From a virus, in IMG/VR virus record IMGVR_UViG_3300047646_000039, positions 1 through 28,257 of that record: a DNA stretch of 28,257 bases; one strand, given 5' to 3'. The number at the start of each line of letters is the position of its first letter. The stretch's first letter is position 1. Shown in pieces: positions 1 to 17,842 of the stretch. The translations under genes and the position numbers were made by a program. Under the pieces are notes generated by a model. The model saw only the letters and a list, made by a program, of their open reading frames with translations, was not told where the DNA came from and made no database searches.

Positions 1-1371
1 CTAACCTATTGTTAAATCCGGTTTAGTTATTATGTTTCCGAGTGTATCCCTGGTTACTCCGGGCTGTGTAATTGTTTTTCCTGATGCTACATGCGTTATT
101 GTATAAGCATTAATTGCATAAAAGCTACTGTCAATTATGGTAGAAGTAAATACGCCCGAACTGCCGTCCGGCCATTTTATTGTTGCACCTGTAATTATAC
201 CGTTTGAATCCCTTGTAATTGAAAGCAACTGATAAGCTATTCCCTCAGTCCATTCTGCAAGCGTCTGGTCGAGAGTATTTTCCCCGCCTAAATTGCGAAT
301 TGCATTAGTAGTATCAAGGTTTGGAACATTCCCGAGTCCTACCTGTGCTTTTGTTGTATTATGCGGATTAGAATTATTATTAAGATGCCCGTTGTATGCA
401 GCCTTGAGTTCATTTGTAAAATCATTTGTTGAAAGGCCCTTGCCGTCCTCTTTATCGACTTTTGAGTTTAATGCTGTTTGGGCTGCCGCTGAGATAGGTT
501 TATTTATATCCGAAGTATTATCTGCGTTGCCTAAACCTACCTGGGCTTTTGTGGTTGCATGTGGATTATTTGTATTATTAATATGACTATTCAATGCTGT
601 CATACTGGCTTTATTATCCAGAGCTGTTTGGGTTGCCGTTGAAATGGGTTTATTTATATCCGAAGTATTATCTGCGTTGCCTAAACCTATCTGGGCTTTT
701 GTGGTTGCATGTGGATTATTTGTATTATTAATATGACTATTCAATGCTGTTGTACTGGCTTTATTATCCAGAACTGTTTGGGTTGCCGTTGAGATAGGTT
801 TATTTATATCCGAAGTATTATCTGCATTGCCTAAACCTACCTGTACTTTTGTTGTATTATGCGGATTGGATGTATTATTAAGATGCCCGTTATATGCAGC
901 CTTGAGTTCATTTGTAAAATCATTTGTTGAAAGGCTCTTACCGGTATCTTTATCTACTTTTGTGTTTAATGCTATTTGGGTTGCCGTTGAAACCGGTTTA
1001 TCTGCATCCGAAGTATTCTCGGCGTTCCCGAGTCCGACCTGATTTTTTGTAACAGAATGAGGGTTATCCGTTCGGGTTTTATGGTCTGTTATGGCCTTTT
1101 CGCCAATCCATATTTTATAAATTGTACCGTCGCTTCTTTTATAAACATCCGATTCGGTAAGTTCGCCTGATTTATCAGCATTAATATAAATTTTATATTC
1201 GCCGTCGGGTACGCCATCGCGGTAATAAACTCCCGCCCTTATTGAATCCTCGGCAAGAGGCATATTTGTATTTACGACCTGGTCTGACGGAACAATATAA
1301 ATATAATTTGAATATCCGGTTAATGTTCCGTTTGCATTTTCCATGAAACGGATAAAACTTGAAGTTGCCAT
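1..1371 (-). CDS. Tail fibre / receptor-binding protein with tandem repeats
   Basis: Likely distal tail fibre, extracellular in the virion, contacting the host surface. The 456-residue protein has an N-terminal part (about 1-95) presumably joined to the tail, then five copies of a phage fibre motif of the form NPHxxTKxQVGLGN (starting near residues 103, 169, 219, 269 and 336), often followed by NTSDxxKPxSTA. That motif is well known in side-tail fibres of many phages. Units starting at 169, 219 and 269 are spaced exactly 50 residues. The last about 100 residues are different and could be the variable tip. It is the last gene of the leftward tail operon, four bases after the gene at 1375. No fibre chaperone or invertible segment is seen because the window ends at its stop codon. 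Family assignment is confident; receptor is unknown. Confidence 0.85.
   Translation of the reverse strand: MATSSFIRFMENANGTLTGYSNYIYIVPSDQVVNTNMPLAEDSIRAGVYYRDGVPDGEYKIYINADKSGELTESDVYKRSDGTIYKIWIGEKAITDHKTRTDNPHSVTKNQVGLGNAENTSDADKPVSTATQIALNTKVDKDTGKSLSTNDFTNELKAAYNGHLNNTSNPHNTTKVQVGLGNADNTSDINKPISTATQTVLDNKASTTALNSHINNTNNPHATTKAQIGLGNADNTSDINKPISTATQTALDNKASMTALNSHINNTNNPHATTKAQVGLGNADNTSDINKPISAAAQTALNSKVDKEDGKGLSTNDFTNELKAAYNGHLNNNSNPHNTTKAQVGLGNVPNLDTTNAIRNLGGENTLDQTLAEWTEGIAYQLLSITRDSNGIITGATIKWPDGSSGVFTSTIIDSSFYAINAYTITHVASGKTITQPGVTRDTLGNIITKPDLTIG
493..840. repeat. 150-bp near-identical tandem repeat inside the fibre gene
   Basis: The stretch beginning at 493 recurs at 643 and, for about 48 bases, at 793. 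The first two units differ by only a few bases, including in third codon positions, so this is a recent DNA-level duplication rather than only a conserved protein motif. A second, more distant duplicate pair links about 350-440 with about 850-940. Copy number could change by recombination and so change fibre length. Confidence 0.85.
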
Positions 1372-1866: not shown

Positions 1867-3050
1867 GCCGCTACATCATAAGTTTGTTGAACAATTTTTG
1901 AAATTCTTTTATCAGAGTTATAGTCAATAAAATTCTGCTGCACTGTTAAAGGTGTAACATCAATATCCGTCTCTATAGTTTCCTCTGTATAATTAGCACA
2001 ATTAGCTATAAATTTATTTCTTACCGGGTTTGGTACCAGTCCTTGTATCATATCAGTAAATGTACCGTCAAGGTTCAAATGTTTTCCATCATAAGGGCAG
2101 GCTTCGGGAATAAGCCAGCCGCCGGTAACCATATTTGTTTTTGTTCCGGTATTCCAAAAAATCCAGTTATTTGAAAGCCATGAAAGGGAAAAGGCCCCGA
2201 GACCTGACTGTGTTTTACCACTCGGACTTGTATATGGCGTATTGCCCGTATAATTACCATAATTAACTCCCCAGAGATTGAAACAAACATTTGCATCTTC
2301 ATATTCCGCCAGGATAGTTGCAATTTTATATGACCAGGTTTCATTATCTGTCTTTACATAATTTGAAGTGCGCGGAATTAATTTGAATGTATCATAGCCG
2401 CTTACCTGTACACCTAATGTAAAAGCCGAACATATTTCGGATAAATAATCATAGAAAGTAATTTTACTGCCGTTATAATTATTATTTATAGTATCGTCAA
2501 TTACCTCATGCTGCACCGCAACCGACTGATTTATGCAATAAAGTACAGGTTCAAAAGTGTAAAAGTCACTATATAAAATATCTTTATCGGCTAATAAGTC
2601 ATGGAAGCAGACTGCGTTTTCAACTAATGAACAATCAAGCGTTAAGCCGCTAAGAGTGAACATCCCTTTTAATAAATCAATAATATAAAATATACTTGTC
2701 CCTGTATTTTCAATTGCATATTGCCCGATTGTTGAGGCATATTCAACCTTTGTATTTTGAAGTTTTTTAAGGTTATGACTTACCTGAATATCATAGCAAT
2801 GATTGTCCTGGTTCAAAGGCGCCGCGCTTATAAAGCCTGCAAATATTACATCAAGGCCGTAATTAATTATTACCTTATCAAAAAGTTGCGGAATAAACGG
2901 GCAGGTAACAGATACCGAACATGAAAAATTTTCAGACGTCGGAGTCCAGTCCCGGTTCATAGCAAGATAAGGGATTGTACTTATTTTATGAATATAATCG
3001 CTTATATCCTGCCAGTCTTCATTTTTAAATATTTTTATAGTCAGACTCAT
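1863..3050 (-). CDS. Putative tail tip hub (distal tail / Tal-like) protein
   Basis: A 395-residue protein encoded directly after the tape measure gene, where siphoviruses place their distal tail and tail-associated hub proteins. The N-terminal half has the feel of the baseplate hub fold: short beta segments with a phrase around residues 60-95 of the sort VIINYG...IFAGFIS...YDIQVSH seen in gpD/gp27-type hub proteins that rotate or shift a domain. I see no peptidase or lysozyme motif. Start ATG overlaps the tape measure stop (ATGA at 3047-3050). Role is inferred mainly from position and this weak resemblance. Confidence 0.55.
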   Translation of the reverse strand: MSLTIKIFKNEDWQDISDYIHKISTIPYLAMNRDWTPTSENFSCSVSVTCPFIPQLFDKVIINYGLDVIFAGFISAAPLNQDNHCYDIQVSHNLKKLQNTKVEYASTIGQYAIENTGTSIFYIIDLLKGMFTLSGLTLDCSLVENAVCFHDLLADKDILYSDFYTFEPVLYCINQSVAVQHEVIDDTINNNYNGSKITFYDYLSEICSAFTLGVQVSGYDTFKLIPRTSNYVKTDNETWSYKIATILAEYEDANVCFNLWGVNYGNYTGNTPYTSPSGKTQSGLGAFSLSWLSNNWIFWNTGTKTNMVTGGWLIPEACPYDGKHLNLDGTFTDMIQGLVPNPVRNKFIANCANYTEETIETDIDVTPLTVQQNFIDYNSDKRISKIVQQTYDVAA

Positions 3051-5620
3051 ATTAAAGGTTTTATTAAAACTGATTTAACGCCGTTTCTTATTAATTGATT
3101 CTTTACACCTTCGGCATTCTTAACGGTTAAATAAGGATCGCTGCTTTCAAGGTTTATCTGCATCGGCCTCTTTTTCAATGATGTTTTCAAATCGATCATA
3201 TTAAGCGCAAGAACATTCATCTTAGTTAATATCTGGCCGCTTAATTGTTCAACCGGCGTAACTTTATTTGCCGCGGTTACGCTTACAAGCTCGCCGGATT
3301 CAACAAATAAAGGATAAGAATCATTTGCATATCCCTGGGGGACTATAAATGAACCGCCGCCTGCAAGCTTTCTTATTCCGCTGTCTGAGACCGAATAACG
3401 CCCTCCTTCATGGCTACTTATCCCGAGCATCGTTAATATGCTTACTCCCGGTCCCCCGGCCATTGCACTTATTATATTTAACAATGCCCATTTAACCATA
3501 ATTTGTTCTATTTCCTGTATAATAAGGTTTCCCATATTTACAAAGAACCGGGTGGTATCATTCGCAGTTTCCGCGGCTTTAATTCTTAACATATCAAAGC
3601 CGCTCATTGCACTTTCATAAAAAACATTATAAGCTGAGGTTGCGGCCTGGCTGCTGTTTATCCAGTCATTAAGTATGCTTTCCTTCCCGGACATATTATT
3701 TTTATTTCCACCTGATAAATTAACGCCCGGATTAGGCTCTCCCGACTTCGGATTCATATTATGAGGAACCAAAGGGCCGTAACCTGATATAGTTAGTTCG
3801 CCGTTCTCATTGAATTTATAAATATCCGAGCCGGTTTCTTTCTTTAGCAATTCCTCAAGATATTTCAGATATTCTTCCTGTATCTTTTTCTTTTCCTCAA
3901 TTTTATATTTTTCAATCTGCACCTCTGTAATACCGTTTTCCCGGAATTTTTTTATTTGCTCGTTCATATTCTTTGCCAGATAATCCCAATAGCTTTTATC
4001 CGCAAATTTTACCGCTTCATAATATTTATTTACAATTTCTTTTTTCTTATCCGCTGCATCCTTTGCCTGCTGTAATTCCTGCAACTTCAATTCCGATTCT
4101 TTTATTTCGCGTTCAATCTTATTATATTCAACGGCATCCGTAACCTGGTCAAATTCCAGTTGCTTTTTACGTAGATCTAAAATATGCGCCTGAATTTGGG
4201 GTATGGTTTTACCTGCAAGTTGCCATGCGTCCGTATTGTTTTTAATATCCTGCGTTGATTGTTTTGTTTCATTAGCTTCTTTCTCATGCTGCGCAAATGT
4301 AACATAACCGCTTCCCTGATATGTTGAAGGTGTACTGGGAGTTGTCATCCATTTAGGCAGAGGTGAAGATGAAGGATTCTGCATCCATTGAAATTGTTTT
4401 ACAAGAAACAATGCGGCCGCCGCCCCGGCGCCGGCCCATCCGAGCAATTTCCAGATTGCGGAACCTTTTGCAGCGGTATCCAGATGAATAAGAGCTGCTG
4501 TCTCGGTTTCAATCTGCCCGGCGGTGGTTAAAGCTGTAAGTCCTAATACCTTTTTCATGGTAATAAGTGTTATAAGAGAAGGTAAAATATCAATCACGGC
4601 GCCGCCTATTCCTATTAATGCCGAAATTACATTTTTCAATTTCTTATCGCTATTATCAAATTCTTTCATAACAGGCATAAGAGCATCATTCAGAAATTGC
4701 CCTAAATTTCTTTTCTGGTTATTAATAGTAACTCCCCAACTTTCCCATTCATCTTTATCAGAACGAGTTGTATCGGTTGCCTTTTCAAACGTCATTCCTG
4801 ATGCATGTATTATAGCTTCAAGCCTTATCTGCCTTTGCGTTTCAGAATCAAGTTCATTTATGCGGCCGCCATGCTGTTTAGATAACTCATATAATTGCTG
4901 TTTATAATCTACGACTGAAATGCCGAGGGCGCGCAATCCTTTTACAGTACCGTCGCTTGCCTGTATAACGCGTTCCATTCCCGCGGAAACATCCCCTCCG
5001 TATTTTTCCGACGCCTCTTTAGCCATAGCAAAAAGCAAAACCTGATCCTTAAATGATATACCCATATCCTTAGCTTTGTTGCTTAATTCAATCAGGCTCT
5101 GGTCGTCCGCCGTTTCCTTAGTCGCTTTTCTTAAAGCTTCCATTTCTTCGACTGTACCTGAAAAATACGACTTTGCTTCGGCCAATGTAGTAGCTTTATT
5201 AATCGATTCTAATAAGATTGTTTTTACCTGCTGAAAGCTTTCTTTAACAAGTTGTACACCCTGATTTATGCCTGTAATTATCATGCCCCAGCGGCTCATA
5301 TTCTCGGTAGTATTTTTCGTTCCGCCTTTTATTGAATCGATTATGGAACCGACTTTATCAAGCCGGGATTGCGCCTCGGTAACAGAGGCGACGTCAAGGT
5401 TTGCCTTTATTTTGTTTTCAAACCGGATTTTTAATTTATTATAATACCCCTCAAGTTCACTTAATTTCTTTTGTCCCAGGAAAGTATCAAAATCTATTTT
5501 AGGCTTCGGCGCGTTGGCATATAGTTTATTAAGCTGCTTAAGCTGCAGTTCAAGCTTATCGGTCTTGGCTTCAATTTCAATTATTAATTTTTCTAAAGTT
5601 TGTACATCCATTGCTACCAC
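3047..5620 (-). CDS. Tail tape measure protein
   Basis: The longest gene of the window (857 residues), which fits a tape measure that sets tail length and passes through the membrane at DNA injection. The N-terminal 120 residues are highly charged and helical (coiled-coil type). A hydrophobic stretch lies at about 330-395 with Gly/Ala/Ile-rich segments, a second helical charged block follows at about 460-600, and a hydrophobic segment with Met/Ile/Ala recurs near 695-725. It lies immediately downstream of the two-frame tail chaperone, the standard siphovirus order. The start used here is GTG at 5618-5620, which overlaps the end of the chaperone's second frame; an ATG three codons later (5609-5611) is equally possible. 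Length would predict a tail of roughly 120-130 nm by the usual 0.15 nm per residue rule. Confidence 0.88.
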   Translation of the reverse strand: MVAMDVQTLEKLIIEIEAKTDKLELQLKQLNKLYANAPKPKIDFDTFLGQKKLSELEGYYNKLKIRFENKIKANLDVASVTEAQSRLDKVGSIIDSIKGGTKNTTENMSRWGMIITGINQGVQLVKESFQQVKTILLESINKATTLAEAKSYFSGTVEEMEALRKATKETADDQSLIELSNKAKDMGISFKDQVLLFAMAKEASEKYGGDVSAGMERVIQASDGTVKGLRALGISVVDYKQQLYELSKQHGGRINELDSETQRQIRLEAIIHASGMTFEKATDTTRSDKDEWESWGVTINNQKRNLGQFLNDALMPVMKEFDNSDKKLKNVISALIGIGGAVIDILPSLITLITMKKVLGLTALTTAGQIETETAALIHLDTAAKGSAIWKLLGWAGAGAAAALFLVKQFQWMQNPSSSPLPKWMTTPSTPSTYQGSGYVTFAQHEKEANETKQSTQDIKNNTDAWQLAGKTIPQIQAHILDLRKKQLEFDQVTDAVEYNKIEREIKESELKLQELQQAKDAADKKKEIVNKYYEAVKFADKSYWDYLAKNMNEQIKKFRENGITEVQIEKYKIEEKKKIQEEYLKYLEELLKKETGSDIYKFNENGELTISGYGPLVPHNMNPKSGEPNPGVNLSGGNKNNMSGKESILNDWINSSQAATSAYNVFYESAMSGFDMLRIKAAETANDTTRFFVNMGNLIIQEIEQIMVKWALLNIISAMAGGPGVSILTMLGISSHEGGRYSVSDSGIRKLAGGGSFIVPQGYANDSYPLFVESGELVSVTAANKVTPVEQLSGQILTKMNVLALNMIDLKTSLKKRPMQINLESSDPYLTVKNAEGVKNQLIRNGVKSVLIKPLI

Positions 5621-6176
5621 TTCCCGGATTTTTTACGTTCCTCATAATCCATTTGAGCGATAAACTCTTTTTCTTTTTCCGTTTCAAAATCATACTTGCC
5701 CGATATGGCTAAAGAGGTAAGGTTAAAGGCTTCATTCAGGAAAAACCTGTATTCTGTTATCGGCAGGCTTTCAACTTCGTTAATTGGTACAGAATAAAAA
5801 TGGGCGATTAAGGATTTTACTTTTGAACGGCTTATAAATTTTCCGCCGTCTTTTTTTTTTCAGCTTCCTCAAGCGTATTAATTTTTTCCACAAGATCGAC
5901 AATTTCATTATCGCTCAGGTGTTTCATTAACCAGGTTGTATTGCGCATTTTTCTAAGCCGGAATCTTTTAATAACCTGGTAAAATTTTATATCAGATAAT
6001 TTTGCCGGTGCAAGGGCGTCTGCAATTTTAGCGCAGGCTATAAGCAACCCGAATTTATTGTCTATCTTTTCACGGTGTTTTATAGTAAAGTCCTCTAACT
6101 CGCGTACATCAAATGAAGTGCGTTCATATAAGGTTGCTTTATAGCCTGCAATATTTACCTGAATATTTTTTCGCAT
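5614..6176 (-). CDS. Tail assembly chaperone, frameshifted long form (gpGT-like)
   Basis: A -1 shift on the A10 run at 5851-5860 (mRNA sense) joins the first 108-109 residues of the short form to a second frame of 78 codons starting DGGKF and ending SGKW with TAG at 5614-5616, giving about 187 residues. The second frame is open throughout, but a TGA lies directly before the A run (5860-5862) and the only ATG is near its end, so it cannot be expressed alone. In lambda-like and many other siphoviruses the G/GT pair directly before the tape measure gene is made in exactly this way; the long form binds the tape measure protein through its T domain and recruits tail tube subunits. The T frame reads as coding: acidic/aromatic helices such as residues EVESLPITEYRFFLNEAF. 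Confidence 0.8.
5832..6176 (-). CDS. Tail assembly chaperone, short form (gpG-like)
   Basis: A 114-residue helical cytoplasmic protein, product of normal termination at 5832-5834. It ends in a Lys-rich tail EEAEKKKTAENL encoded across the A10 run. Its place between tail tube (6183) and tape measure (5620), its size and its frameshift overlap fit the short tail chaperone, which assembles with the tape measure before tube polymerisation and is absent from mature tails. Sequence alone would not have named it; the second reading frame does. The gene begins six bases after the tail tube gene. Confidence 0.78.
   Translation of the reverse strand: MRKNIQVNIAGYKATLYERTSFDVRELEDFTIKHREKIDNKFGLLIACAKIADALAPAKLSDIKFYQVIKRFRLRKMRNTTWLMKHLSDNEIVDLVEKINTLEEAEKKKTAENL
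5851..5860 (-). promoter_or_regulatory. A10 slippery site for -1 frameshift
   Basis: Ten A residues in the mRNA sense (ten T on the plus strand), read GAA AAA AAA AAG in frame 0. A slip of one base back gives AAA then GAC. Either ribosomal slippage or RNA polymerase slippage on the homopolymer could produce the long form. A homopolymer length error in the assembly is the trivial alternative, although the location, directly upstream of the tape measure gene, is where a frameshift is expected. Confidence 0.75.
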
Positions 6177-6182
6177 AATAGT

Positions 6183-6770
6183 TTATGAATTTTTGGTTAA
6201 TGCCCCGGAACCGCTTGCATTGCCTGTAACCTGTACGGCGTCTGTTAATTTGCATGTTACATCGTAGCTTTCAAATATTGCAGTACCGCCCCAGTAATTG
6301 TCTTCATCAACGTCTAATTCCACCGGTAATTTTTCCTGTATCGGCAGGTCGCCCTGGCCGTCATAAAGCAAAGCGGAATATGTAAACGTCCAGCTCTTAT
6401 GTCCTGCGATTTCTCTTTCCTCCCATTCGCCGGATTCCGAATCGCTAACATCCACCGAGGTTGATTTAGGAGATTTTTTCCAGTCCGTAATCGGCAATAT
6501 CCTCTGTGCGGTACCGGAACCGGCTTCGCCCCAGGTTTGCGATGATGCAAGCGCAACTTTAAATGTTGTAGAGGTTGCCTCAGTAACAAGCAGGCCGCGG
6601 TTGCCGTTGTTTAAGTCGGTCATTGTCGTACTTTTTAATAATACAAACATACCTGCCTTTAATATATTTGCGCAGGTTATTGTAGCGATGCCGTTTGCAA
6701 TTGTAACGCCTGTAATTGTCATTATTGCGCCGATTTTAATCCTGCCTGATTTGCCTGATAGTTTTCCCAT
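6183..6770 (-). CDS. Major tail tube protein
   Basis: A 195-residue beta-rich protein. The N-terminal part (about 1-80) is Gly/Thr/Ile-rich and ends with a TAQRILPITDWK-like strand; the C-terminal part (80-190) has the pattern SxSVDVSDSESGEWEE...SWTFTYSALLYDGQGD...DEDNYWGGTAIFESYDVT, typical of tail tube subunits of the gpV/Hcp fold. Lacks a sheath gene next to it, so the tail is taken as non-contractile. Located just upstream of the chaperone and tape measure genes, as expected. Family assignment rests on fold-type pattern plus order. Confidence 0.75.
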   Translation of the reverse strand: MGKLSGKSGRIKIGAIMTITGVTIANGIATITCANILKAGMFVLLKSTTMTDLNNGNRGLLVTEATSTTFKVALASSQTWGEAGSGTAQRILPITDWKKSPKSTSVDVSDSESGEWEEREIAGHKSWTFTYSALLYDGQGDLPIQEKLPVELDVDEDNYWGGTAIFESYDVTCKLTDAVQVTGNASGSGALTKNS

Positions 6771-9974: not shown

Positions 9975-10445
9975 TTATTTTCCCATCTTGGATTTTATTT
10001 CTGCAATAGCCGCGTCCTTAATATCTTTCTGAGATTTCACCTTTTCAGGTTCTTCATTTACTTTTATTTTGCCCGGGAGTGCTGAGTTCTTTTCTTTTGC
10101 GTCAAGCTTTGCCTTTGTTCCGGCATAATCAACTTTTGCATTATTCAACCAGACCTCTTTATCGGCCGGTAATATTTTTCCATCTGCAATAGCGCCGTTT
10201 ACCAGATCGTCGTTTTCTTTATGTTGCAGGGATAATTTCAGGTCGTCAAATTCTTTGCGCGGAACAAAGTTTTTTGATTCAGGTAAATTAAGCGCTGAGG
10301 CTGCCTGTGACGCGGTAATAATATCTGTAATAGTTGCATCGTCTTTTAAATTAAACTGTTTTCTTAATTCTGCAAGTTTGTCATTAATCTGTTGTTCGGT
10401 TGCGTTTTCCGGGAGTCCCAGAAATATTAATAATGCTTTGTTCAT
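9975..10445 (-). CDS. Possible nested scaffold protein from internal start
   Basis: An in-frame ATG at 10443-10445 (Met194 of the protease) would give a 156-residue scaffold without the protease domain. An AAAGG lies seven bases upstream, a plausible ribosome site. Lambda C/Nu3 and Mu I/Z make their scaffolds from such an internal start, so the arrangement has precedent. Here the evidence is the domain boundary coinciding with Met and this weak site; no direct proof. Confidence 0.4.
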   Translation of the reverse strand: MNKALLIFLGLPENATEQQINDKLAELRKQFNLKDDATITDIITASQAASALNLPESKNFVPRKEFDDLKLSLQHKENDDLVNGAIADGKILPADKEVWLNNAKVDYAGTKAKLDAKEKNSALPGKIKVNEEPEKVKSQKDIKDAAIAEIKSKMGK

Positions 10446-11024
10446 TTCTTTACCTTTAATTTTATTTTTAACTTCATCATCATTGATTAAATTAACAAAA
10501 AGGCCTACATACCCCTTATCCATAACCGCGGGATCAACTATGCCGTCAACAAATCCTTTTTTCAAAGCTTCTTTATCAGTAAGAAAAGTATCCGCGTCCA
10601 TCATGTCGGTAATTTCAGATTTGCTTAAGCCCGTTTTCTGCATGTAAATTTTAATTATAGATTCATTTATTTGCTTTAGTTGGTCTGCATTTTTCTGCAT
10701 TTCATTGTTATCGCCTGCGGCCAGCATCCAAACGTTATGAATCATAAGCATAGTGCTTTTATACATGAATACTTCTTTGCCCGCCATTGCTATAACTGAG
10801 GCAATCGAAGCGGCTATACCGTCAACATAGGTAATAACATTTTTACTCTTAAGTAAATTGTAAATGGCAATGCCGTCAAATACAGAACCGCCATAACTGT
10901 TTATATGCACTTCAAATTCAGTCGTTCCCTGTTTTTCCGCTTCATCAAGGGCCAACTGGAAATCTTTTGCGGTCAATGCACCTTCGCCAATGGTATCATA
11001 TATATAAATTTTTGCTTTCGGCAT
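9975..11024 (-). CDS. ClpP-like (S14) prohead protease fused to scaffold-like domain
   Basis: A 349-residue protein. Residues 1-165 are a ClpP-type serine protease: HINSYGGSVFDGIAIYN (40-56), nucleophile Ser73 in GIAASIAS, His96 in LMIHN, and Asp145 in DADTFLTD, the spacing matching ClpP. It would cut scaffold and capsid arms during head maturation. Residues 194-349 are helical and highly charged, beginning MNKALLIFLGLPENAT, a phrase close to the scaffold part of Mu-I-type proteins, and ending in a Lys-rich tail. It is the first gene of the leftward late operon, next to the divergent control region. Confidence 0.9.
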   Translation of the reverse strand: MPKAKIYIYDTIGEGALTAKDFQLALDEAEKQGTTEFEVHINSYGGSVFDGIAIYNLLKSKNVITYVDGIAASIASVIAMAGKEVFMYKSTMLMIHNVWMLAAGDNNEMQKNADQLKQINESIIKIYMQKTGLSKSEITDMMDADTFLTDKEALKKGFVDGIVDPAVMDKGYVGLFVNLINDDEVKNKIKGKEMNKALLIFLGLPENATEQQINDKLAELRKQFNLKDDATITDIITASQAASALNLPESKNFVPRKEFDDLKLSLQHKENDDLVNGAIADGKILPADKEVWLNNAKVDYAGTKAKLDAKEKNSALPGKIKVNEEPEKVKSQKDIKDAAIAEIKSKMGK

Positions 11025-11180: not shown

Positions 11181-11672
11181 ATGAAATATGCTCCGCAGTT
11201 GATAGCTGAAATAAAATTCAAGTTTGTACATGAAGGCTTAAGCGCACGGGTTATATCGAAAGGATATGACGGTAAACCGAGCATCCAGACTATAATCAAC
11301 TGGTCAATAATTATAAATAAAGACGGTTCAAACTGGGTAAGCGAACGTGATGAATTTATTCAAAAGCAGTATGAAAAGCTTTCACCTCAAAGTCAGGCCG
11401 GTAAAATACTTGAAAGAATAAATATTTTATTGCAGAAGCCCTCCAAAAGTTTTACAACAAAAGACGCCGATGCACTTGCCAAACTTCAAAAGGTTATGGA
11501 AAAACTGATTGATAAAAATTTCCAACTGCCGGTAATGTATTCCATGCTTTCAGACTTCGTTGTTTTTCTTAAAGATAATTATATAGAACTTCTTTTGCCC
11601 GAACTTGGCTTATTAAACGCCGTAAGGCATTTCAAGAATAATCTGAAAGATAAATATGCCGGGAAATATTAA
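11181..11672 (+). CDS. Putative terminase small subunit
   Basis: A 163-residue helical protein. Residues about 17-45 look like a helix-turn-helix (EGLSARVISKGYDGKPSIQTIINW), followed by a charged oligomerisation-type helical region and a hydrophobic C-terminal helix around 120-140. It is the first gene of the rightward late operon and overlaps the large terminase start by 17 bases. The small terminase recognises phage DNA and hands it to the motor; in Mu-like phages packaging starts near the phage end. Call rests on HTH plus position. Confidence 0.68.
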   Translation: MKYAPQLIAEIKFKFVHEGLSARVISKGYDGKPSIQTIINWSIIINKDGSNWVSERDEFIQKQYEKLSPQSQAGKILERINILLQKPSKSFTTKDADALAKLQKVMEKLIDKNFQLPVMYSMLSDFVVFLKDNYIELLLPELGLLNAVRHFKNNLKDKYAGKY

Positions 11673-13164
11673 ACAACTTGACGAAGCCTTTGAAGAACTA
11701 CTGAATAAAATAACCTTTGAGGAATCAGATACCGAGTTGACGCCTGAGTTAAGGATTAAACGCCGCGCCCTTGCCGATAATGACGACTTTGAATTCTGCA
11801 AAATTTATTTTCCGCAAATATTTTTTGATTTATGGAACGCTATACACCGGCATATTAAAAGCCTTAAGCATGGCAAATATACTGTTTCAGGCAGTCGTAA
11901 ATTTGGCAAGACAGCTTTTACACTCATAACAAAATTAGTAAAACATATCTGCCTCGGCGGTATAGGATTAACCGGACTTATCCTGAGAACCCAGGACGAC
12001 GCATATGAACGCGGCGATGCTTTAATGCGGCTGATTAAGCGCAATAAAAAATTAATGTATGACTACGACGTGCAATTTCAGCAGGATAAAAAAGGGCACT
12101 GGATTGTTAATAATAAAACCTTCGTAGGTATCGGAGTCCGGGAAGGAATGCGAAATTTCTTAGATGAAGAATTTAACCGCTTTGAAGTATTAATACTTGA
12201 CGATTTATTTAACCGCATCTCGGTAACTTCAAAAGTTGATAATGAGAAAGTTTATGACTTTGTTTCCTCCGAAGCAATCGGACAAATGAATGACGACGGC
12301 CTGTTAATCTGGTTATTTAATATTATCATGCCTGATTCCCCCGGGGATAAATTTGCAAAAGAACACCCGGATAATCATTTTAACCTGCCTGCATTAAATG
12401 ACAATGAGGAAACCAACTGGCCCGAATCTAAAAAATTTACTACTGAATATTTAATCGCCTTAAGGGATTCTATGAATTATGAAATATGGATGGGCGATTA
12501 TATGAATAAGCCGGTCCTGATAGGAGAGATATTCAAAAAAGAATGGATAAGATTTATAAATATCAATACCGTGAATATTATTACTTCGCTTTCTGCAATT
12601 GATCCCAGCTACGGCAAAAGTCCCGAAGCCTGCTATAAGGGAATTATCACACTGGGAGTAACAGATAAAGGCGAACGTCCCGTAATAGATATTTATTTAA
12701 GAAAAGAAGATTATTCATACGTCTTTGATTATATAGATAATATAAGGCAAACCGCGCCGCATTGGAAAATACTTTTATTTGAAAATGATTTCTCTCAATT
12801 CCAGATAGCAAAGCCTTATTATGACGCATGGTGTGAAAGCCATAAGAAAGAAATTTCGCTTTTTGTATTCAGTACAAAATCGCTTAAGACTGACGAATAC
12901 GGTTCTGATAAAGTTTCAAGAATTATGAACCTGGTATTTCCGCACCAGACCGGCAAACTGCTGTATTCAGACAGACTTGAACATACCGCGGATTACCAGT
13001 TATTTCTTACACAATACCTCAGCTTCGGAAAGAGTACAGAAAAACTTGACGGCCTTGACGCCGAAGCTTCGGCATATATTCAGATTGCAAGTTATGTGGA
13101 TAACGGCAGCTTCAATTCCTCCGGGCACCGTAAAGCAAAAGAAAAATTATTCAGAAAGGTTTAA
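11656..13164 (+). CDS. Terminase large subunit (DNA packaging motor)
   Basis: A 502-residue two-domain motor. The ATPase domain has a Walker A variant GSRKFGKTA (79-87) and Walker B VLILDD (178-183), with the terminase-type deviant P-loop. The RNase H-like nuclease domain begins near 312 with SAIDPSYGKS (Asp316 metal ligand) and continues through LLFENDFSQFQ. It packages DNA into proheads through the portal encoded next. Comparable to Mu gp28-type terminases. Start is within the end of the small terminase gene; no strong ribosome site, so coupling is likely. Confidence 0.92.
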   Translation: MPGNIKQLDEAFEELLNKITFEESDTELTPELRIKRRALADNDDFEFCKIYFPQIFFDLWNAIHRHIKSLKHGKYTVSGSRKFGKTAFTLITKLVKHICLGGIGLTGLILRTQDDAYERGDALMRLIKRNKKLMYDYDVQFQQDKKGHWIVNNKTFVGIGVREGMRNFLDEEFNRFEVLILDDLFNRISVTSKVDNEKVYDFVSSEAIGQMNDDGLLIWLFNIIMPDSPGDKFAKEHPDNHFNLPALNDNEETNWPESKKFTTEYLIALRDSMNYEIWMGDYMNKPVLIGEIFKKEWIRFININTVNIITSLSAIDPSYGKSPEACYKGIITLGVTDKGERPVIDIYLRKEDYSYVFDYIDNIRQTAPHWKILLFENDFSQFQIAKPYYDAWCESHKKEISLFVFSTKSLKTDEYGSDKVSRIMNLVFPHQTGKLLYSDRLEHTADYQLFLTQYLSFGKSTEKLDGLDAEASAYIQIASYVDNGSFNSSGHRKAKEKLFRKV

Positions 13165-15875: not shown

Positions 15876-16271
15876 TTAAACCGGAATAGCCTTATTCATA
15901 TTTGGATATATTCTAAAATATTTCCACTTCCCCTCAATCCGTACAACTGCAATATAATATTCCGGTGTATCATATTGCCAGTTGAATTTAACATCAGGAA
16001 TAAACTTTCTGAAATAATTAAGATAGGTTCTAAGAATTGATTTTTGAAAAAGGTAAACAGGTTCTAACATATCAAGATATTTAATTACTTCTTTTGTAAT
16101 CTCAATCTGCCCGGGTTCGGAATCTGCAAGGTCAACATCCATTTTACTTTTTTCACCGACTATAATTGAAACAATTTTTTCACGCAGTTCAAGTTCATAT
16201 CTCAATGGAAATTTTGTCTTTGGATTCTCTTTTAACACGGCAATTATTTTATTCAAGGGTATCATTTTCAC
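15876..16271 (-). CDS. Hypothetical protein, last gene of the early operon
   Basis: A 131-residue soluble protein with no recognised family. The N-terminal half is helical and charged, the C-terminal half aromatic and beta-rich (WQYDTPEYYIAVVRIEGKWKYFRIYPN). It overlaps the adenine methyltransferase by 23 bases, so it belongs to that cassette; an accessory role in modification or anti-restriction is only a guess. Ends facing the hairpin at 15826. Confidence 0.55.
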   Translation of the reverse strand: MKMIPLNKIIAVLKENPKTKFPLRYELELREKIVSIIVGEKSKMDVDLADSEPGQIEITKEVIKYLDMLEPVYLFQKSILRTYLNYFRKFIPDVKFNWQYDTPEYYIAVVRIEGKWKYFRIYPNMNKAIPV

Positions 16272-17097
16272 TAAACAGATATAAATTATTTGTCTGGTAC
16301 GGATTATAATTTGTCCACAGAATTTCCTGTCTCTTTGTTTTATGCAGTATTGTTTCCCGTTCCGGGGCTTTTATTTTGTAAAATCTCTTTAGTTCTTCAT
16401 TATATAAATCCGATTCATACCCGGATATTGCTATTTTTGCTTTTGATTTTTTACATAGTTCCAATAAATAATAATGGTCGGATAAAGACATTTCAAATTC
16501 ATATTCCGATTTATTTGTTCTTGTATTATGTACATAAGGAGGATCGCAGTATAATAAAGTATCCTTATTATTAAACTTTTCAAATATGTCCCTGAAATCC
16601 ATATTAGAAATTTGGATAGAACGCAACCGGTTTATTATTCTTAACAGATTAGGAATTTTAGAGTTCCATCGTGAACACATTTCCGAAATATTTTTTCTTG
16701 AATTATGTGAACTCATTTTCCAGCCTGTTTGCCTTGCATAAGTGCCGTTAAAACTTTGATTGACTGCGACAAAAAATCTTCTCGCCCTTTCAATCTTATC
16801 TCCCTTATTCATATCCCGGTAGCATTTTATGTATTCGTCCTGGCAATAAGGCGTTAAATAAATTTTTTCAAGAAGCTTTTCAGAATGATCTCTAAGGCAT
16901 TCAAAGAAGTTAATCACAACGGAATTAATATCGTTAAGAGTTTCAATTTTACTTGGTTTACGATTAAATAAAATAACTCCCGAACCGCCGAAAACCTCAA
17001 CATAATTCTTTGTTTCCGGCAGGTGGTTAATAATAAAATCTGCGTGCATAAATTTTCCGCCGAAATAATTGAAGGGAATAATTTTACTTTTTATCAT
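16249..17097 (-). CDS. DNA N6-adenine methyltransferase, D12 / Dam class
   Basis: A 282-residue alpha-class adenine methyltransferase. Motif X NYFGGK (10-15), motif I VEVFGGSG (33-40, AdoMet binding) and catalytic motif IV DPPY (185-188, in LLYCDPPYVHNTR) are all present in the right order. It transfers a methyl group from S-adenosylmethionine to adenine in a short target, probably GATC-like by family, though this is unproven. No matching restriction enzyme is seen, so a protective role for phage DNA is likely. The start overlaps the C5 methyltransferase end by 14 bases. Confidence 0.9.
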   Translation of the reverse strand: MIKSKIIPFNYFGGKFMHADFIINHLPETKNYVEVFGGSGVILFNRKPSKIETLNDINSVVINFFECLRDHSEKLLEKIYLTPYCQDEYIKCYRDMNKGDKIERARRFFVAVNQSFNGTYARQTGWKMSSHNSRKNISEMCSRWNSKIPNLLRIINRLRSIQISNMDFRDIFEKFNNKDTLLYCDPPYVHNTRTNKSEYEFEMSLSDHYYLLELCKKSKAKIAISGYESDLYNEELKRFYKIKAPERETILHKTKRQEILWTNYNPYQTNNLYLFSENDTLE

Positions 17098-17842
17098 AGT
17101 ATCGTTTAATTATAAGGAATAAGTAATATGCTATTTGCGGAACAATGGCATTTCCCAGGCCGCATAGTCTATCTGCGTCCAATTTTCGGGATAGCCCATT
17201 ATTACTTCCACTAAGGAGATATTTATATCTTCGCCAGTTGTACATTTTATAATCTCTAACAGAGATAGTGTGAAGCAATTCCCATTCTCGCGGTTCTTTT
17301 TTATTTTCCTTTGCAGCGAAGATACCGGCAAGTTCATTAAATATTGAAATCCCATTGAAGCGACCGGAGTAGGCAATAATCCACATCCTTTTACGGACAT
17401 GCGGAGCTCCGACTTCCTCTGCGGAAATAACCTGCCATTCGACATTATACCCGATATTGGAAAGCGATTCGACAATTTCTTTTAATCCTTTATTTCTTAT
17501 ATTAACAACATTTTCAATTACTATAACACCCGGTTCCAGTTCAGTAATAATTCTGAAATATTCATACCATAAGCCCGAACGCCTGCCTTTTATCCCGGCG
17601 CCGGTTTTGTTTAACAAACTAATATCCTGGCATGGAAAGCCGCCGGAAATGATGTCAACCTTTTTAAGATTATGCCTGCCGGTCTTTTGTATATAAGAGA
17701 ATTTATCGACGCCGGGGAAATTTTTATTTAATACCGCCCGGCAGAATTCATTTTTCTCAACCTGCCATAATGTTTTTATTCCGGCCCACTCAGCGGCAAG
17801 GTCAAAACCGCCTATGCCTGTAAATAAACTGCCATGCGTCAA
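17084..17842 (-). CDS. DNA cytosine-5 methyltransferase
   Basis: A compact 252-residue C5 methyltransferase. Motif I SLFTGIGGFDLAAEWAG (5-21), catalytic Cys71 in GGFPCQDIS, motif VI IEN (109-111), motif VIII HVRKRMW (148-154), and a C-terminal motif X GLGNAIVPQIAYY are visible. The recognition region between VIII and X is short. The start is a TTG (17840-17842) overlapping the TGA of the upstream gene (TTGA), with GGAG eight bases before; no in-frame ATG precedes motif I. It forms a pair with the adenine enzyme. Confidence 0.9.
   Translation of the reverse strand: MTHGSLFTGIGGFDLAAEWAGIKTLWQVEKNEFCRAVLNKNFPGVDKFSYIQKTGRHNLKKVDIISGGFPCQDISLLNKTGAGIKGRRSGLWYEYFRIITELEPGVIVIENVVNIRNKGLKEIVESLSNIGYNVEWQVISAEEVGAPHVRKRMWIIAYSGRFNGISIFNELAGIFAAKENKKEPREWELLHTISVRDYKMYNWRRYKYLLSGSNNGLSRKLDADRLCGLGNAIVPQIAYYLFLIIKRYYDKK

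What the first reader, a model, noticed from the sequence alone, without database searches (positions are those of the whole stretch)
5614..5860. Hidden second frame and -1 frameshift of the tail chaperone
A 78-codon frame without its own start, bounded upstream by TGA directly before an A10 run, directly precedes the tape measure gene. This is the lambda G/GT arrangement on a pure A10 slippery site, and shows an unannotated protein needed for tail assembly.
Basis: partly seen in the sequence, partly recalled or inferred. Interest (0 to 1): 0.7.

Follow-up and report, generated by a model that had tools for sequence, protein, structure and literature searches.

The report
Frameshifted tail chaperone at poly-A run
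A Mu-like virus of (probably) Bacteroidota makes two versions of a tail-building helper protein by slipping one letter at a run of ten A's, a trick long known from phage lambda and kept here by every relative found, so it is a real but mostly ordinary feature, with one open question about whether the ribosome or the RNA polymerase does the slipping.

Summary
The putative tail-assembly chaperone (TAC) frame 5832-6176(-) contains an A10 run (5851-5860) near its end; the -1 frame is open from there to 5614, 5 nt before the tape-measure ATG. The -1 frame has normal codon usage, homologues in other phages, and purifying selection between relatives (dN/dS 0.12 and 0.20). In 11 of 11 loci with a readable tail module (window included) the second frame is entered by -1 and never fused. 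Eight form one homologous TAC family and all carry A9 or A10 exactly at the transition; three with unrelated chaperones use T6C or T8 sites. A9+/T9+ runs are otherwise almost absent: 9 in 169 kb, 7 of them at this site. A sequencing error is therefore very unlikely; only 11 (or 8) A's would fuse the frames, not 9. This is the lambda G/GT arrangement in a new, unannotated TAC family: a new member of a known kind. No named TAC family or solved fold matched, so TAC identity rests on gene order and frameshift layout. Unsettled is the slipping step: ribosomal -1 on A AAA AAG/A (favoured) or RNA polymerase slippage to A11, which the conserved run length of at least nine A's leaves open.

The parts
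6183..6770 (-). major tail (tube) protein, directly upstream of the chaperone
   Evidence: PHROG 1407 / 584 major tail protein E 1e-6 / 3e-6; homologues at the same place in L002, L005, L009, L015, L016, L022
5832..6176 (-). tail-assembly-chaperone-like frame 0 product (G-like, 114 aa)
   Evidence: ORF; homologue in L015 32% id, E 2e-7; no Pfam/PHROG match
5851..5860 (-). A10 shift site; frame 0 heptamers A AAA AAA and A AAA AAG
   Evidence: A9 or A10 at the same place in 8 of 8 homologous loci
5860..5862 (-). TGA that closes the -1 frame on its upstream side; shares its A with the run
5614..5859 (-). -1 frame (T-like extension, 78 codons after the run), stop TAG 5616-5614
   Evidence: homologous to the -1 frames of L015 (42%, E 9e-11), L016 (8e-5) and L005 (1e-4)
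3047..5608 (-). putative tape measure protein, ATG 5 nt after the -1 frame stop
   Evidence: longest ORF, 41% identical to the same gene of L005

Best explanation
A Mu-like phage tail module makes two chaperones from one gene. Most products stop at 5832 (short, G-like, 114 aa). A minority change to the -1 frame on the A10 run and continue for 78 codons, giving a fusion of about 190 aa (GT-like) whose C-terminal domain is encoded only by 5614-5850. By analogy with lambda, the shared N-terminal part would bind the tape measure protein and the extension would recruit the tail tube protein, and the ratio would matter. Shown here: both frames, the site, its conservation and purifying selection on the extension. 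Inferred: that the shift happens, its efficiency, and both binding roles. Slipping step: tandem ribosomal -1 slippage on A AAA AAG/A is favoured (about 0.6), RNA polymerase slippage giving A11 mRNA is the main alternative (about 0.3), or both act.
For: Open -1 frame with true-gene codon usage, 0 of 5400 comparable frames open. Seven other homologous loci with frame 0 and -1 frame in the same relation, including L024 (same phage as L022) and L025, which were fetched after the A-run pattern had been noted. Three relatives with non-homologous chaperones have the same -1 layout on T TTT TTC or T TTT TTT sites. dN/dS in the -1 frame 0.12 (L016/L025) and 0.20 (L002/L009). Gene order tail tube - TAC - tape measure. 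In 7 of 7 loci tested a net +1 A reaches a 68-82 codon extension, a net -1 A stops within 1-26 codons. Lambda G/GT is described as widely conserved in long-tailed phages despite low sequence similarity (PMC5009743), and a Pseudomonas Mu-like siphophage has a proposed T TTT TTC -1 site at the same place (PMC4378225).
Against: No protein or RNA data. No match of either part to a named TAC family or fold (AlphaFold pLDDT 65 for the extension and 46 for frame 0). No downstream stimulatory RNA structure in any of 8 loci (z -0.41 to +0.89), although lambda-type low-level shifting is not known to need one (own knowledge).
Confidence: 0.88

Rival explanations
1. RNA polymerase slips on the A9-A10 run and makes a share of A11 (or A8) mRNAs; ordinary translation of these gives the fusion, comparable to Thermus dnaX. 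The G/GT ratio is then set in transcription. (This is a rival for the slipping step only, not for the fusion.)
For: All 8 homologous loci have 9-10 A's although a ribosomal heptamer needs only 6-7; the run's phase varies (GAA AAA AAA AAG, GTA AAA AAA AAA G, ATT/GAT/ATC AAA AAA AAA G) while its length stays 9-10. The first Lys of KKK is kept in 8 of 8 amid variable neighbours. Nine As is the length at which selection against slippage becomes evident in many bacterial genomes (PMC1088944), and slippage on 9 As/Ts is efficient in vivo (PMC5009743).
Against: Any run of 9 or more also contains a ribosomal heptamer, so length alone does not decide; three relatives use T6C or T8 sites, and T6C is too short for plain homopolymer slippage; lambda-type systems studied are ribosomal; eight loci are few and share ancestry.
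Confidence: 0.3
2. Homopolymer sequencing or assembly error: the true run has 11 A's and the gene is one ORF.
For: Homopolymers are error-prone; one extra A would fuse the frames. Read data were not available.
Against: The same out-of-frame relation in 8 homologous loci from different assemblies and in three relatives with T6 or T8 sites; never a fused form; run lengths differ (9 or 10) but always in the -1 phase; it is the expected layout for a TAC.
Confidence: 0.03
3. The second frame is a separate small gene started internally or by reinitiation, not a fusion.
For: The frame 0 stop lies inside the second frame, so reinitiation is conceivable.
Against: No start codon in the -1 frame before codon 69 in the window and none at a common place in relatives; the overlap and the slippery site would be unexplained.
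Confidence: 0.03
4. Phase variation: the DNA run itself changes length and switches the fusion on or off.
For: A9-A10 runs can slip in replication.
Against: All loci sit in the same -1 phase, none is fused or in the third phase; relatives with T6C sites are not expected to do this.
Confidence: 0.03

Closest known systems
Lambda G/GT and the tail-assembly-chaperone -1 frameshift of long-tailed phages (Xu, Hendrix, Duda 2004; reviewed in PMC5009743)
   Same: Position between tail tube and tape measure gene, overlapping -1 second frame ending at the tape measure start, slippery site near the end of the first frame, no usable start in the second frame
   Different: No detectable sequence or fold match; A9-A10 run in place of lambda's site; function not tested
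Putative -1 tail frameshift of Pseudomonas Mu-like siphophages such as PaMx73 (PMC4378225)
   Same: Mu-like head and transposition genes with a -1 (not Mu's -2) tail chaperone shift; T TTT TTC as in L003 and L008
   Different: Window family uses a poly-A run; no tblastn match of the TAC homologues L015 and L016 in 50,697 phage records
Thermus thermophilus dnaX transcriptional slippage on nine As (PMC5009743, PMC1088944)
   Same: Run of at least nine A's in coding sequence used to make two product lengths
   Different: In dnaX the unslipped frame gives the long product; here the unslipped frame gives the short one; slippage at the RNA level is not shown here

Membership tests
Lambda G/GT-type tail assembly chaperone | Gene lies between major tail protein and tape measure gene | tested here: met
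   same order in L002, L005, L009, L015, L016, L022, L025
Lambda G/GT-type tail assembly chaperone | Second frame reached by -1 (rarely -2 or +1) with overlap, slippery sequence at the transition | tested here: met
   11 of 11 loci, X XXY YYZ heptamer in frame 0 in each
Lambda G/GT-type tail assembly chaperone | Second frame is a selected protein-coding sequence | tested here: met
   (codon usage, homology, dN/dS 0.12 and 0.20)
Lambda G/GT-type tail assembly chaperone | Sequence or fold homology to a known TAC family | tested here: inconclusive
   No Pfam/PHROG/PDB match; structure models too poor to judge. Known TACs are highly divergent
Lambda G/GT-type tail assembly chaperone | Both products made in a set ratio; N-part binds tape measure, extension binds tail tube | not testable with these tools
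   needs protein work
Programmed transcriptional slippage gene | Run of about nine or more A or T at the transition, kept in homologues | tested here: met
   A9-A10 in 8 of 8 homologous loci; 7 of 9 A9+/T9+ runs in 169 kb lie there
Programmed transcriptional slippage gene | mRNA with heterogeneous run length | not testable with these tools
   needs RNA sequencing

The most novel reading that the evidence does not exclude
A phage tail-chaperone family has moved the lambda G/GT switch from the ribosome to RNA polymerase: the ratio of short to long chaperone is set by slippage on a conserved A9-A10 run. That would parallel dnaX, where homologous genes use ribosomal frameshifting or transcriptional slippage.
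Probability: 0.3. Interest if true: 0.55.

Novelty: new member of a known kind. Interest (0 to 1): 0.33.

Why it matters
It corrects annotation: automatic gene calling would miss a selected 78-codon domain in a group of Mu-like phages with no relative of this TAC found among isolate phage genomes. The A9-A10 run gives an easily seen marker for this TAC family, and a clean natural case to ask whether a phage can set its chaperone ratio by transcriptional rather than ribosomal slippage.

Tried and rejected
Single-protein scans of IMG/VR with the fusion, capsid, tape measure and protease found nothing; terminase worked. Weak family matches (phrog_33987, UBL_AVO1, Phage_80a_gp11 on the L003 extension) are below cut-offs and were set aside. 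PDB profile matches of the extension to ribosomal protein eL8 (E 0.0015 and weaker, one protein family, charged helix) and Foldseek matches (all E above 1) were judged chance. L011/L012 (tail tube hit of 31%) and L018 (extension hit with a stop inside) are unrelated on inspection. A stem-loop GACGGC/GCCGUU right after the run is no stronger than shuffles and lies with no spacer from the site. A GAGG upstream of the run in the window is not at the same place in the relatives looked at, so an internal Shine-Dalgarno stimulator was not proposed. Reading the fusion with a four-letter codon word did not isolate the site. The phylum-wide genome search with A12 returned nothing even in G391 and is uninformative.

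Full report
What is there. The window is an IMG/VR virus record of 28,257 bases. It is a Mu-like phage: Mu portal, Mu protease and lysozyme matches, weaker matches to GemA and a DDE transposase. On the minus strand the tail tube gene (6183-6770) is followed by a 114-codon frame (5832-6176) and then by the putative tape measure gene (ATG 5608). Without a further gene there would be 223 non-coding bases between the last two. Those bases are filled by a frame open from a TGA at 5862-5860 to a TAG at 5616-5614, in the -1 phase to the 114-codon frame. The TGA shares its A with an A10 run that reads GCT GAA AAA AAA AAG ACG in frame 0, which contains the heptamers A AAA AAA and A AAA AAG in the right phase for tandem -1 slippage.

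Is it more than chance. The window holds one A10 run, with 4.64 expected in shuffles, and no other A or T run above 8. In other genes of the window none of 5400 windows of 78 codons in the same relative frame is stop-free. The codon-usage score of the second frame (0.40) is that of a true gene frame (0.387 +/- 0.108), not of a wrong frame (-0.03 +/- 0.16, 0.4% reach it).

Relatives. Terminase similarity gave L002, L003 (= L004), L005, L006, L007 and L008; tail tube similarity gave L009, and in bacterial genome assemblies L015, L016 and L022; chaperone similarity gave L024 and L025. L006 has no tail genes in reach. L002, L005, L009, L015, L016, L022 (same phage as L024) and L025 encode homologues of the window chaperone family, in two branches (window with L015; the rest together), and their second frames are homologous too: window versus L015 42% (E 9e-11), versus L016 E 8e-5, versus L005 E 1e-4. 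In all eight loci the frames are joined by a net -1 shift at a run of ten A's (window, L005, L002, L009, L015) or nine (L016, L022, L025). L003, L007 and L008 have other chaperones, and still the -1 layout, with T TTT TTC, T TTT TTT (T8) and T TTT TTC. So 11 of 11 loci are out of phase by -1 and none is fused. Between L016 and L025 the second frame has 17, 11 and 30 differences at codon positions 1, 2 and 3 and dN/dS 0.12; between L002 and L009 dN/dS is 0.20 (synonymous sites are near saturation, so these are rough). Raw reads were not available.

The run. In 168,771 bases of these loci there are nine A or T runs of nine or more, and seven lie at this site, one in each of the seven homologous loci then in hand. 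The phase of the run within the codons varies while its length stays 9-10, and KKK is kept in 8 of 8 while the residues on both sides vary. Elsewhere in the window KKK is written AAG AAA AAA or AAG AAA AAG. A run of 9-10 always contains a ribosomal heptamer, so the data fit both ribosomal -1 slippage and RNA polymerase slippage to A11. Published length thresholds place nine A's at the edge of efficient polymerase slippage (PMC1088944, PMC5009743), while consecutive AAA codons also make ribosomes slide (PMC4363877). No stimulatory RNA structure was found downstream in any of the eight. I favour the ribosome about two to one because the related phages with T6C sites presumably use it and because lambda-type systems studied so far do.

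What it is. Gene order, layout, site and selection all fit the lambda G/GT system, described as widely conserved in long-tailed phages despite low sequence similarity (PMC5009743) and proposed with a -1 T TTT TTC site in a Pseudomonas Mu-like siphophage (PMC4378225). Homology to a named TAC family could not be shown: no Pfam, PHROG or PDB match, and structure models were poor. So it works like G/GT with high likelihood, and membership in a named TAC sequence family is unproven.

Verdict. Real, well supported and of a known kind. The family itself appears undescribed: no tblastn match of the homologues L015 and L016 in 50,697 phage records, nor of L005 in 72,556 plasmid records. The open and testable part is the conserved A9-A10 run.

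Noticed in passing
window 9975-11024(-) and 11656-13164(+): Protease/capsid/tail genes and terminase/portal genes are transcribed divergently, and the relatives keep this; unusual beside the late operons of Mu (own knowledge).
   Followed up: partly
window 16249-17842(-): Adjacent D12 adenine and C-5 cytosine DNA methyltransferase genes, overlapping by 14 bases.
   Followed up: no
window 1-1371(-): Putative tail fibre with repeated NNPHATTKAQ(V/I)GLGNADNTSDINKPIS units at the window edge.
   Followed up: no
L003 / L004: A contig of the same length (38,406 bases) is in IMG/VR and in a MAG named Nautiliaceae (Campylobacterota), though a relative sits in a Bacteroidetes MAG; possible mis-binning or wide host range.
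   Followed up: no
L002, L005 versus window: Terminase, portal and tail tube are homologous while no match to the window capsid is found in L002 and L005: head modules seem to be exchanged within this phage group.
   Followed up: partly
L022:714-722 and L008:3451-3459: The only two A9/T9 runs outside the shift site in the loci scanned; the first lies inside an ORF upstream of the tail genes, the second at the end of the L008 second frame, next to the tape measure start.
   Followed up: no
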